Virus record (IMG/VR): IMGVR_UViG_3300047554_001102
Location: 1 to 46,409 of that record
Length of the DNA: 46,409 bases
Strand: one strand, 5' to 3'
From: a virus
Shown here: piece after piece, positions 7,679 to 17,508 of the stretch
Layout of the letters: each line of letters begins with the position of its first letter
Position numbering within the stretch: the first letter of the stretch is position 1
Position numbers and translations under genes: made by a program
The notes under the pieces: model-generated
What the model was told of the DNA's origin: nothing
What the model saw: only the letters and a program-made list of their open reading frames with translations
The model's database searches: none

Positions 7679-9205
7679 CTAATCTATTCTAACGGCCTTA
7701 ACACTTAGCAAAGACTCTAATCTATCTATAGAAATGTCAGCATAGCTAGGCGATAATTCTATACCATACCCCACCCGACCAGTACCAGCCGCAGCAATGA
7801 GGGTAGAACCCGATCCACAAAAACAGTCAACAACTAGATCACCTTTATCACTAAAAGCCTTTATAAACCATTCTGGGAGTTTATGGGGAAAGGCTGCCTG
7901 ATGTCCATTATTTTTGTTTACCGTATGTACTTTAAGCACGTTACTAGGGAGGGCAGTCCCCGATACCAGATCGCTATTATCTAGCACAGGCATATTCCAA
8001 TGAGTGCCATTGCCCCCATCTATTCTCGCTTCGCCCTCACCACTGAAACAATAGTCAGACTCATGCCCTACACGCTCAGGGTAGAAGCGTTCGATTGCCT
8101 TATCTGATTTGGTAAAGTGAAACACAGGCTCAAAGCCGTTCTTAAAACGATTAGGCCAACTCCCAGGCGCGGCATTGCGTACCCAACAAAACTCATCTAC
8201 GAAACACCAGCCCCAGTCATCTACATGGCTTATAGTAAGCTTTTTGACGTATAAATGCCTTTGCCCTTGTTCGCAGTGTTCTTTGATATTTAAGAAGTAA
8301 CTACCGCTATTAGATAGCCACAATTTAATGTTTTTTTGCACACTCTCAAACCATTTACTATAGCCGTCTGCTGGTATTGGTTTAAAGCCACTACTTTCGT
8401 CATATTTACGTTGACTGGCATAGGGCGGTGAAGTAAATAAAATATCAATCTTGCGATCGCCTAACAGTTTGTCCCACACAGCTAAGTCTAGGCAATCACC
8501 GACAATAATCCTATGATCGCCTATCGCCCATAGATCGCCTGGCTTAGAACTCGGCTCGATTATCTTGTCTAAGCTGTCTAAAATTTGATCGTCTAAGTTA
8601 TCAGTTACACTATCATCTAGATTATTGTCTAATTCACTGTTTAAATCGTCATTAAAGCTTGTCTGTTGACTGTCATTATAGATACTATCTAAACTATCAA
8701 AACAAGCTAGATTTGTTACGTTGTTTTGTAATAAATAATCACTTTGGGCCGCTAACGCCACACTATCAAAAAGCCCAAAAACCACCCCATCCCCCAACGC
8801 TGCAACAGTAGTGGCATTGTGGTCTATGCTGTAGGCTATAGCGGCGGCTTGACTATCTGATTTAGCGATAGTTGCTGGCACTAACCAGTCAATTACTTTG
8901 TCGCCTTTTAAATCTTTACTAACACCATTAGGCGGATTGTTGCGGTCTTTTTTAAATAAGGTTTTAAGGCAATTAAGGCTACGATCATGCCCTTCTACCA
9001 ACGTAAACATGACCGTTTTATCGGCTAAAAGCTGGTCAATTGAAAGGTCTTTATACTTATCATCTAGGAATACCAGATCAACCTGGATAGGGTCGCGGAA
9101 GCCGTGATAGTCAATACTGGCTAACGTGTTACTGGTAGAGTGCTTTTTGGAGTTATTGACAAGGCCTTCTAGTCGGGATAAGGGTATAAGGCGATATTCA
9201 AGCAT
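7679..9205 (-). CDS. ParB-like nuclease domain fused to class-beta DNA methyltransferase
   Basis: A 508-residue protein. Residues 1-130 resemble the ParB/sulfiredoxin fold (FRDPIQVD, LVEGHDRSLNCL). An Asp/Leu/Asn-rich low-complexity linker covers about 165-215. The methyltransferase follows, with the catalytic motif TSPPY (258-262) before the SAM motif FCGSG (462-466), the class-beta order. TSPPY favours N4-cytosine methylation, although N6-adenine is possible. ParB-methyltransferase fusions are common in phages and usually have no restriction partner, and none is visible here. A likely role is protecting phage DNA from host restriction. Confidence 0.9.
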   Translation of the reverse strand: MLEYRLIPLSRLEGLVNNSKKHSTSNTLASIDYHGFRDPIQVDLVFLDDKYKDLSIDQLLADKTVMFTLVEGHDRSLNCLKTLFKKDRNNPPNGVSKDLKGDKVIDWLVPATIAKSDSQAAAIAYSIDHNATTVAALGDGVVFGLFDSVALAAQSDYLLQNNVTNLACFDSLDSIYNDSQQTSFNDDLNSELDNNLDDSVTDNLDDQILDSLDKIIEPSSKPGDLWAIGDHRIIVGDCLDLAVWDKLLGDRKIDILFTSPPYASQRKYDESSGFKPIPADGYSKWFESVQKNIKLWLSNSGSYFLNIKEHCEQGQRHLYVKKLTISHVDDWGWCFVDEFCWVRNAAPGSWPNRFKNGFEPVFHFTKSDKAIERFYPERVGHESDYCFSGEGEARIDGGNGTHWNMPVLDNSDLVSGTALPSNVLKVHTVNKNNGHQAAFPHKLPEWFIKAFSDKGDLVVDCFCGSGSTLIAAAGTGRVGYGIELSPSYADISIDRLESLLSVKAVRID

Positions 9206-15394: not shown

Positions 15395-15610
15395 TTATGC
15401 CCAAATCACTCCATGCTCAATTAAATAACTTCGGTGTACGGCTTTTGACTTGCCTTCTGCGTTTTCGACTAAGTAAAGAGGGTTTTCTTTGTCTGCAAGA
15501 ATCACCTCTGTCACTTTGGCTAGTTCTTTTGCCTTGATAAAGCAAGGATCAAAAGCCCATGCAGAAGGAGAAAAGTCTTTTGATAACGTGAATGGTATTG
15601 TAATTTTCAT
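15395..15610 (-). CDS. Small hypothetical protein (71 aa)
   Basis: Begins MKITIPFTLSKDFSPSAWAF; the ATG follows GGATTAATCA. A small beta-rich protein with a KSKAVHRSYLIEHGVIWA tail. No family recognised. It lies immediately beyond the right-end hairpins of the IsrB element, so the insertion appears not to have broken it. Confidence 0.6.
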   Translation of the reverse strand: MKITIPFTLSKDFSPSAWAFDPCFIKAKELAKVTEVILADKENPLYLVENAEGKSKAVHRSYLIEHGVIWA

Positions 15611-15648
15611 TGATTAATCCAATCCTCAAATAATCGTGTTTTAGCTGT

Positions 15649-15700
15649 GGGGTCAAATTCATACCCCACTCCAATACCCAAGGCTTCGTGTTGGGAGTGG
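15649..15700. repeat. Tandem hairpins downstream of isrB (candidate element end)
   Basis: GGGGT (15649-15653) pairs with ACCCC (15663-15667). CCACT (15666-15670) with inner CCCAA (15677-15681) pairs with TTGGG (15691-15695) and AGTGG (15696-15700). Subterminal hairpins are the transposase recognition sites in IS200/IS605-type elements. They lie 14 bases past the isrB stop. Confidence 0.55.
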
Positions 15701-15713
15701 CAGGGAATTTCTG

Positions 15714-16814
15714 CTAGTGAGAAATGGTTAAACCGTTGGATCGACGAATTAATTGAATCTTGCTAACAGCTATCTGCCCTAATCGTTTCCAATTGGCATC
15801 GTTAATAGATAGCAGTTTTTTAGTGTCTCCACCAACATAGCCGATTCCTTTAGGAGAAAAAACTAAATCCCCCTTGCGAAACTCCTTATATCTTGTAGTG
15901 GAGCCACCATACTTACGTCGCTTACCACCCTTGGCAGTAACCATAGAATGAAGTTGACGACGGCTAATGGGAGGACGTTTGACGATGGCAAAAGGAGAAT
16001 TCGTTACTTCAACAGAGCCTTTCCATTCGTGGCCATGCCCGTTAGAGGTATGGAATGGCAAATAATCTAAAAACCGAAAACAGGCGAGAGTAATTCCATC
16101 GTTAGCATGGCTTTCTGGAGTTTGTTCTGCCTTATTTTTGGATTTTTCTAATCCCAAATGCTTCCTCAGATTATATGTTTGCCAACCAAATTTGGTATGA
16201 ACCGTAGCAATCCTAGCAAGTTGTTCGATAGCCCAGTTTTGACCGATCATAACGGGAGAAAAGCTTTTACCTGATTTAGCTCCTTTCCTACCTGAAGTCA
16301 GTTCTATATCAGCTTTGACGTATTCAAAATAAATATCTGTAACTGGGTAGATTTTGGCTAGTTCAGAAACAACTCTCAGTTCGAGTTGACGATTAGCTCT
16401 TATGGAAGGGGCTAACTTATTTTTTCTTCTATTGGAGAATCGTTCTTGACGATGCGCCCTACGGTTAAAAGGAATGTTACGGTTGATTCGCCGTCCCCTT
16501 CTAAGTTTTCGCATCATTCGCCGATTGTCCATTCGTTTCCTTATCTGCTTAAAGGGAAGCTCTAAATGGGCTTTCCATAAGGTAAAAAGAGAAGATTGAA
16601 CACCGATTCCAGAAAATAATTTACCTGGGTCAATGCCAATAGAAATTGGTTGAGTCTTATCGTCGGAAGACTCGGTAGTTAACTGGACATAGAAAATATC
16701 TAAGTCGTTAAATTTGCCGATAGCTTTTCCTTCTTTGATCCACCGCCTAGCCCGACTTGGTTTAGTTGGCATTAACGGCTTTCCGTCTTTTGAAATAACA
16801 GGAACTCTTGGCAT
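15714..16814 (-). CDS. isrB: IsrB-type RNA-guided RuvC nickase (HNH-less IscB relative)
   Basis: 366 residues with the order that defines IscB/IsrB proteins: a PLMP domain (GKPLMP, residues 11-16), RuvC-I SIGIDPG (D62), an Arg-rich bridge helix (about 92-133), RuvC-II IYFEYVKAD (E164), and RuvC-III ESHANDG (H236, D239). Only about 70 residues separate RuvC-II from RuvC-III and contain no HNH motif, so it is IsrB rather than IscB. IsrB proteins nick the non-target strand of DNA using an omega RNA encoded just upstream. All catalytic residues are present. No transposase gene is adjacent, so any element would be mobilised in trans. Confidence 0.9.
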   Translation of the reverse strand: MPRVPVISKDGKPLMPTKPSRARRWIKEGKAIGKFNDLDIFYVQLTTESSDDKTQPISIGIDPGKLFSGIGVQSSLFTLWKAHLELPFKQIRKRMDNRRMMRKLRRGRRINRNIPFNRRAHRQERFSNRRKNKLAPSIRANRQLELRVVSELAKIYPVTDIYFEYVKADIELTSGRKGAKSGKSFSPVMIGQNWAIEQLARIATVHTKFGWQTYNLRKHLGLEKSKNKAEQTPESHANDGITLACFRFLDYLPFHTSNGHGHEWKGSVEVTNSPFAIVKRPPISRRQLHSMVTAKGGKRRKYGGSTTRYKEFRKGDLVFSPKGIGYVGGDTKKLLSINDANWKRLGQIAVSKIQLIRRSNGLTISH

Positions 16815-17039
16815 GGAGATAATCCTTAAGAGTAAAGTTTAAGTCCCTTCGCCCACCTAACAAACTATGTCTTGTCTTACAACGTCTCACCAATGAGACT
16901 TAGAGGGAATCCGAACTAGGGAAGTATTCGGAAGTCTGTAAGATTGTTAGGCTCTACGGGCTAGTCTCTACTTACGTTGCCTAAATTGGCTTAGGCAAAC
17001 CCCGTCCATTTTAGACAGTGTTAGTGATCGTTAGAACAG
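16815..17039 (-). ncRNA. Candidate omega RNA of the IsrB element
   Basis: The 225 bases before isrB are gene-free and highly structured on the same strand. Stems: TTGCCTAA (16977-16984) with TTAGGCAA (16991-16998); TCCGAA (16910-16915) with TTCGGA (16927-16932), enclosed by GACTT/AAGTC; GTCTCA (16884-16889) with TGAGAC (16894-16899); and a long-range junction of CTAACAA (16857-16863) with TTGTTAG (16944-16950) plus TCTTACA (16875-16881) with TGTAAGA (16937-16943). In this family the RNA lies 5' of the gene, with its guide at the 5' end; that end would be near 17020-17060. Confidence 0.7.
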
Positions 17040-17294
17040 TCAGGGATAGGGACTCCAAAACCATTCAGATTTAGGGTGAGTTTTCATCCATTCATCTGTT
17101 TTGGTCATCTCACAAATCATACGGTCTGTCTCGTATGGCTGCATTACACAGCTAGTCTGGATGACGTAAAGAACACTGCCTGGGGGGTGAGGATATTTGG
17201 GTTTGGGGCCAAGCCAACCCCAAAGGCAAGCACCGCAAAATGCCAAAAATAAAACAGTATTAACTAAATCTTGATCGGGTTTTTTAGTCGGCAT
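17040..17294 (-). CDS. Small membrane protein (84 aa)
   Basis: The ATG at 17294 (MPTKKPDQDL) is chosen because it overlaps the preceding stop by 11 bases; an upstream in-frame start would bury it in that gene. One membrane segment is predicted at about 11-25 (VNTVLFLAFCGACLWGWL), then a Pro-rich stretch and a soluble tail with two Cys. Its stop lies at the presumed 5' border of the IsrB element. No family recognised. Confidence 0.6.
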   Translation of the reverse strand: MPTKKPDQDLVNTVLFLAFCGACLWGWLGPKPKYPHPPGSVLYVIQTSCVMQPYETDRMICEMTKTDEWMKTHPKSEWFWSPYP

Positions 17295-17508
17295 GGATGA
17301 AAATTGTAGGAGGGCGTTTTTTAATAGAAATACCAGCAGGGAGAAATTCAAGGCTACCCTTAATGATTTGATCAACCGTTACCACTGTCGGCCTGTGATT
17401 GGTTGCGAAGAATGATGGGCCGTGACGGTGGCGGCGTGAACAATAAACGGCGAGTTGGAGAGTTTGACCCACCTTGTAGTGATTGGGCAGCATCGTCGGC
17501 GATAACAT
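17284..17508 (-). CDS. Hypothetical protein (74 aa) overlapping its upstream neighbour
   Basis: Begins MLSPTMLPNHYKVGQTLQLAVY and is basic, with a beta-rich second half (PTVVTVDQIIKGSLEFL). It overlaps the ORF at 17372-17605 by 137 bases in another frame and the membrane-protein gene by 11 bases. Its composition looks more protein-like than the overlapped part of 17372-17605, so the two may be one gene joined by a frameshift. Confidence 0.55.
   Translation of the reverse strand: MLSPTMLPNHYKVGQTLQLAVYCSRRHRHGPSFFATNHRPTVVTVDQIIKGSLEFLPAGISIKKRPPTIFIHAD

What the first reader, a model, noticed from the sequence alone, without database searches (positions are those of the whole stretch)
16815..17060. 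The isrB leader folds into a branched RNA whose 5' guide would be read from the flank
A 14-bp discontinuous junction (CTAACAA/TTGTTAG and TCTTACA/TGTAAGA) encloses two further stems, with another hairpin 5' of them. This level of pairing is not expected by chance in 225 bases. In this family the guide precedes the scaffold, so it would come from the end of the upstream gene or the adjacent bases. What that guide matches would say whether it targets host, phage or the donor site.
Basis: partly seen in the sequence, partly recalled or inferred. Interest (0 to 1): 0.75.

Follow-up and report, generated by a model that had tools for sequence, protein, structure and literature searches.

The report
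Guide RNA of a phage nickase
The bases just upstream of this cyanobacterial virus's isrB gene encode a real, evolutionarily conserved guide RNA (an ωRNA) that should lead the IsrB enzyme to nick DNA; it is a recognisable member of a known class, but its virus relatives carry unexplained CRISPR-like arrays of guide-end fragments that deserve testing.

Summary
The window is a virus record with an intact isrB (15714-16814, minus strand). The leader is a genuine ωRNA on the minus strand: scaffold 17028→16837, guide 17029-17048 (20 nt assumed). A covariance model built without the window finds it at 194 bits, E 8e-52. Across 29 leaders 30 of 42 tested pairs show double compensatory changes, and a loop-3' end pseudoknot also covaries. 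Folding energy alone is only modestly significant.

The guide is the end of the upstream 111-aa gene plus 11 bases. Elsewhere in the family, guide+ATGA equals the empty insertion site: shown at one Microcystis locus (10 of 12 genomes empty) and, for the outer flank, at one phage locus. The window copy has lost the element's right end, so it is probably immobile, yet isrB is under strong purifying selection (dN/dS about 0.09). No target for its guide was found.

Best reading: a homing-like RNA-guided nickase carried by a phage. It is a new member of a known kind (IsrB/HEARO). Unexpected: related phages carry tandem arrays of ωRNA 5'-end stubs with variable spacers between insertion flank and ωRNA, so guide and insertion site are decoupled there.

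The parts
16837..17028 (-). ωRNA scaffold (5' end at 17028, 3' end about 16837)
   Evidence: Full-length match of a covariance model built without the window: 194.2 bits, E 8.2e-52, model 1-193; weak full-length Rfam HEARO RF02033 match 17028-16837, 27.8 bits, E 0.0028, below the gathering score 83
17029..17048 (-). predicted guide, 5'-TATCCCTGACTGTTCTAACG-3' (20 nt assumed from DtIsrB)
   Evidence: Sharp start of homology at the scaffold 5' end in all relatives; guide length 20 nt for DtIsrB (PMC9581776); guide+ATGA = empty site in a family member
15714..16814 (-). isrB, 366 aa, RuvC-type nickase without HNH; residues D62, E164, H236/D239 aligned with DtIsrB
   Evidence: Pfam RRXRR 1.9e-53; full-length PDB match 8dmb DtIsrB 1.1e-42; dN/dS 0.08-0.11 against relatives
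16964..17028 (-). helix P1: 17028-17022 with 16970-16964 (5' strand GTCACTA in relatives)
   Evidence: Covarying: G-C/U-A, C-G/A-U/G-C, U-A/C-G
16851..16961 (-). helix P4: GCCCG 16961-16957 with TGGGC 16855-16851
   Evidence: 93.8% of cells paired, double changes at 3 of 5 pairs
   Evidence: 99.1% of cells paired, double changes at 7 of 8 pairs
16844..16922 (-). adaptor-type pseudoknot: loop UCCCU 16922-16918 with 3'-end AGGGA 16848-16844
   Evidence: 99.3% of cells paired, double changes at 3 of 5 pairs, 0/500 shuffles on cells changed on both sides
17040..17375 (-). upstream gene, 111 aa, whose 3' end overlaps the guide
   Evidence: Homologue in isrB-less phage L055 (74% identity); homology stops at about 17053
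15607..15713 (-). remnant of the downstream gene (...AEIPCHSQHEALGIGVGYEFDP...); the element's right end is missing here
   Evidence: Homology to L055 resumes at 15714; relatives have a hairpin and TTTTTC before ATGA

Best explanation
The leader is the ωRNA of an IsrB element that entered this phage. Transcribed from the minus strand, it starts with a guide copied from the left flank (end of the 111-aa gene), followed by a ~192-nt scaffold that folds as a HEARO-type RNA with a pseudoknot and ends just before isrB. [quoted passage not shown] the allele without the element. Because the window copy has lost its transposon right end, it probably no longer transposes. The nick would let it be copied into element-free relatives during co-infection by recombination in flanking phage DNA, as a homing nickase. 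Shown here: RNA structure by covariation, boundaries, protein family and catalytic residues, purifying selection, and guide+ATGA = empty site at other loci of the family. Inferred: transcription, complex formation, nicking, and the homing role of this copy.
For: Structure; blind model hit. Protein. Guide rule: filled L036 versus empty AAAGAAATTTTT|ATGACTGTACTGACC in 10 of 12 Microcystis genomes, no duplication; Fukuivirus filled L006 versus empty CAGACTTAAGT|ATGACAGCA in LMM01, MaMV-CH01, MaMV-DC, MaMV-DL01 (there the array separates this flank from the ωRNA). All 21 intact Microcystis/phage-type right ends are followed by ATGA. A laboratory insertion of a host IsrB gene plus 207 bp upstream and 59 bp downstream into phage Mic1 at ATGA is published (PMC11237433). 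In MaMV-DL01 the isrB body is replaced by an HNH endonuclease gene between the same element ends. Precedent for IS RNA-guided nucleases as drive/homing: PMC11870625.
Against: No exact empty allele for the window's own guide: the only relative without isrB (L055) has a different 95-nt junction, and 25 bases of the window's left flank do not match it. No guide target in any collection searched. No promoter above chance and no expression data for this copy. IsrB nicks rather than cuts, and nick-driven homing by IsrB has not been demonstrated to my knowledge.
Confidence: 0.68

Rival explanations
1. An inert remnant: an IS200/IS605-type IsrB element that jumped in, lost its right end and is decaying; the RNA fold is an inherited relic with no current role.
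For: Right end missing and downstream gene truncated; no Pfam-recognised TnpA among the ORFs of 100 aa or more tested; no target for the guide.
Against: Open reading frame with all catalytic residues and dN/dS about 0.09 at dS about 1; full-length ωRNA with nearly all pairs intact. When the right end was lost is unknown, so selection may predate it.
Confidence: 0.22
2. Co-opted by the phage as an RNA-guided weapon or regulator aimed at another phage or the host rather than at its own empty site.
For: isrB is retained in several Microcystis phage lineages; Ma-LMM01 gp171 is transcribed and co-expressed with phage transposases/recombinase (PMC5584929); arrays in relatives decouple the guide from the insertion site.
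Against: No target in phage, virus or cyanobacterial sequence for the window guide or the array guide.
Confidence: 0.08
3. A cis-acting leader (attenuator or autoregulator of isrB) rather than a guide RNA.
For: The RNA lies directly upstream of the start codon on the same strand.
Against: Fold matches HEARO end to end; orphan copies occur without isrB (phage Mic1; L045), where it cannot regulate isrB in cis.
Confidence: 0.02

Closest known systems
IsrB / OMEGA (Desulfovirgula thermocuniculi DtIsrB with its ωRNA; PDB 8dmb, PMC9581776)
   Same: ~350-aa RuvC nickase without HNH, full-length homology, PLMP motif, RuvC residues, guide 5' of a large scaffold, adaptor pseudoknot, NTGA-type motif
   Different: Scaffold about 192 nt instead of about 264; sits in a phage genome; right transposon end lost
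HEARO RNA (Rfam RF02033)
   Same: Weak full-length match with the same order of helices and matching 3' end
   Different: 27.8 bits, below the gathering score of 83; belongs to IsrB, not the HNH-bearing IscB the family is named for
Host IsrB element that inserted into Microcystis phage Mic1 in culture (PMC11237433)
   Same: IsrB gene with about 0.2 kb upstream and a short downstream end, inserted before ATGA in a Microcystis phage
   Different: That copy has both ends and was newly inserted; the window copy is old (dS about 1 to relatives) and lacks the right end
TnpB/IscB IS200/IS605 elements as homing or gene-drive nucleases (PMC11870625)
   Same: Guide recorded from the insertion flank; target is the element-free site
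   Different: IsrB nicks one strand; no TnpA seen in the window; homing not tested

Membership tests
IsrB (OMEGA nickase) | RRXRR/PLMP N-terminus and RuvC homology over full length to an IsrB | tested here: met
   Pfam RRXRR 1.9e-53; phmmer 2-363 to 8dmb, 1.1e-42
IsrB (OMEGA nickase) | No HNH domain, about 350 aa | tested here: met
   366 aa; only RRXRR found; NCBIfam IscB model matches residues 6-172 only and below cut-off
IsrB (OMEGA nickase) | RuvC catalytic residues conserved | tested here: met
   IDPG, FE and HAND segments align with DtIsrB, invariant in 7 relatives
IsrB (OMEGA nickase) | Structured ωRNA upstream on the coding strand, with adaptor pseudoknot | tested here: met
IsrB (OMEGA nickase) | Guide from the transposon flank, with NTGA-type TAM in the empty site | tested here: inconclusive
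   Met at other loci (outer flank only at the array locus); not demonstrable for the window copy because its right end is lost and no exact empty allele is known
IsrB (OMEGA nickase) | RNA-guided nicking activity and transcript | not testable with these tools
   Needs biochemistry or RNA-seq
HEARO RNA (RF02033) | Match at or above gathering score | tested here: not met
   27.8 bits versus 83
Mobile IS200/IS605-type element | Both element ends present | tested here: not met
   Right end absent in the window
CRISPR array | Regular repeats with cas genes next to isrB (relatives' arrays) | tested here: not met
   Units of 16-108 nt sharing GTCACTAACCC, variable length; no cas annotation beside the Fukuivirus copies

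The most novel reading that the evidence does not exclude
In relatives of this element carried by Microcystis phages, 44 degenerate copies of the ωRNA's 5' end (GTCACTAACCC...) lie in tandem between insertion flank and functional ωRNA in eight loci, with variable spacers. Each copy carries the 5' strand of helix P1, so an upstream copy could pair with the scaffold and bring its own spacer as guide, or recombination between copies could swap guides. That would be a CRISPR-like multi-guide array that arose inside an IsrB element on a phage. The window copy has no such array.
Probability: 0.13. Interest if true: 0.9.

Novelty: new member of a known kind. Interest (0 to 1): 0.55.

Why it matters
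It places a complete, selected RNA-guided nickase with its guide RNA in a phage genome without an intact transposon, where the homing role proposed for OMEGA nucleases can be tested by phage co-infection. The related array loci are a possible natural intermediate between one guide per transposon and a multi-guide array, and laboratory phages (Ma-LMM01, MaMV-DC, Mic1) carry the loci needed to test it.

Tried and rejected
(1) Significance by folding energy on the stated interval: weak. (2) TCTTACA/TGTAAGA as part of the junction: rejected. (3) The inverted repeat after isrB (CCACTCC..GGAGTGG, about 15664-15700) followed by ATGA at 15662 first looked like the element's right end; L055 has the same sequence without isrB, so it is phage DNA. 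(4) Guide targets in the window, phages, IMG/VR, Microcystis and 388 cyanobacteria: none. (5) The array-adjacent spacer TATATCTGGAGT looked conserved, but 12 bases are too few against roughly 3% divergence of the neighbouring ωRNA (estimated by eye), and no ATGA-flanked target was found. (6) A second empty-site test at the L038 locus found no match. (7) Arrays in 12 Microcystis genomes: none. (8) No report of such arrays or of IsrB homing turned up in the searches; the founding OMEGA paper was not held, so precedence is not excluded.

Full report
WHAT THE WINDOW IS. The window is a 46,409-base virus record with phage genes: terminase, SSB, Gp157, primase-polymerase, helicase, integrase, baseplate hub. 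No close relative is in the phage collection. isrB lies at 15714-16814 on the minus strand: RRXRR 1.9e-53, full-length similarity to DtIsrB (8dmb, 1.1e-42), RuvC residues aligned and invariant in relatives, no HNH domain.

THE RNA. The leader must be read on the minus strand. Rfam's HEARO model matches 17028-16837 end to end, far below its gathering score (27.8 versus 83 bits, E 0.0028). I collected homologous leaders from phages, IMG/VR contigs and cyanobacterial genomes from Microcystis to Calothrix. Nearly all start abruptly at GTCACTAAC or an equivalent. On an alignment of 29 leaders (A2), a HEARO-like structure of 42 pairs is formed in 94.7% of cells; 30 pairs show changes on both sides; no shuffle reaches this and sliding destroys it. 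RNAalifold, predicting on its own, finds 53 pairs, 39 with double changes. The pseudoknot UCCCU/AGGGA changes to UGUCU/AGACA in Crocosphaera (99.3% paired). A covariance model made without the window finds exactly 17028-16837, 194.2 bits, E 8e-52; the next hit in the window has 8.4 bits.

CTAACAA/TTGTTAG is confirmed. TCTTACA/TGTAAGA is a property of this sequence and one close relative, not of the family. Folding energy alone would not have justified the claim.

ELEMENT ANATOMY. In relatives the element runs from GTCACTAAC through ωRNA and isrB to a hairpin and TTTTTC(G), and the next bases are ATGA in all 21 intact Microcystis/phage-type right ends, very often the start codon of the next gene. 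At L036 the 5' flank AAAGAAATTTTT and the 3' flank ATGACTGTACTGACC are joined exactly in 10 of 12 Microcystis genomes: no target duplication, and the guide plus ATGA reconstitutes the empty site. At a Fukuivirus site, four phages have CAGACTTAAGT|ATGACAGCA where L006 has the element. A published culture experiment saw a host IsrB gene with 207 bp upstream and 59 bp downstream insert into phage Mic1 at ATGA (PMC11237433). A lead from memory, not tested: HEARO elements were first described as inserting at ATGA/GTGA.

THE WINDOW COPY. Compared with the isrB-less relative L055, homology stops at about 17053 and resumes at 15714, the last base of the isrB stop codon. The right end is therefore missing, and the start of a small downstream gene is gone. 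The ωRNA and ORF are intact and dN/dS against ten relatives is 0.08-0.11. No TnpA was recognised among the ORFs of 100 aa or more tested (the 2,365-aa ORF and a few short overlapping ORFs were not tested). The 25 bases containing the guide do not match L055, so the original target of this copy is unknown, and no target was found elsewhere.

FUNCTION. IsrB RNPs nick dsDNA next to NTGA (PMC9581776), and IS RNA-guided nucleases act as homing/drive devices in plasmids (PMC11870625). The most economical reading is a homing nickase that attacks the element-free allele. At one related locus (MaMV-DL01) the isrB body has been replaced by an HNH endonuclease gene between the same element ends, consistent with a homing niche. 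Expression of a homologue is known: Ma-LMM01 gp171 is transcribed in a bloom and co-expressed with transposases and a recombinase (PMC5584929).

ARRAYS IN RELATIVES. In eight phage loci the insertion flank and the functional ωRNA are separated by 3-10 stubs of the ωRNA's 5' end (44 units, 41 distinct; first 11 bases 88-100% conserved, but the search required similarity in the first nine, so that figure is inflated). Outside these loci only isolated 5' ends or whole orphan copies occur. No array was found in 12 Microcystis genomes. The same last spacer (TATATCTGGAGT) precedes the ωRNA at two different insertion sites, so guide and insertion site are decoupled. At a third locus (L008) the last spacer resembles the first flank. 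Whether the array supplies guides, swaps them, or is a by-product of recombination is undecided; no target was found. The window copy has no array.

Noticed in passing
L013 2376-2479, L014, L016, L003 2365-2785, L005 2618-2785, L006 2445-2784, L007 2559-2784, L008 2447-2784: Tandem arrays of ωRNA 5'-end stubs (GTCACTAACCC + variable spacer, mostly 27-65 nt) directly upstream of the full ωRNA, only in phage loci.
   Followed up: partly
L012 3000-3189 (phage Mic1 23333-23522): Complete orphan ωRNA without isrB between genes Mic1_18 and Mic1_19, ending in an element right end before ATGA.
   Followed up: partly
L015 1834-2618 (MaMV-DL01): isrB and most of the ωRNA replaced by a 192-aa HTH-HNH endonuclease between the element's remaining left and right ends.
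   Followed up: partly
L005 3001-4453: A second ωRNA-isrB element sits inside a resident isrB at CTAACTG, where relatives read CTAACTGATGA, i.e. at an internal ATGA; the rest of the first copy is missing.
   Followed up: partly
L005 777-1534: Element with intact ωRNA and right end but a 119-aa unrelated ORF in place of isrB.
   Followed up: partly
L002 2786; L012 3000: The element's 5' end TCACTAA supplies an in-frame stop codon to the interrupted upstream gene, while ATGA at the right end often is the next gene's start codon.
   Followed up: partly
L045 2491-2680 and 2777-2972 (Rivularia): An orphan ωRNA directly in front of a complete ωRNA-isrB element.
   Followed up: no
L033 1618-1700, L031 6616-6694: Short truncated ωRNA 5' ends in phage contigs away from isrB, next to unrelated genes.
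   Followed up: no
window 7679-9205: Phage-encoded N6/N4 DNA methyltransferase (508 aa).
   Followed up: no
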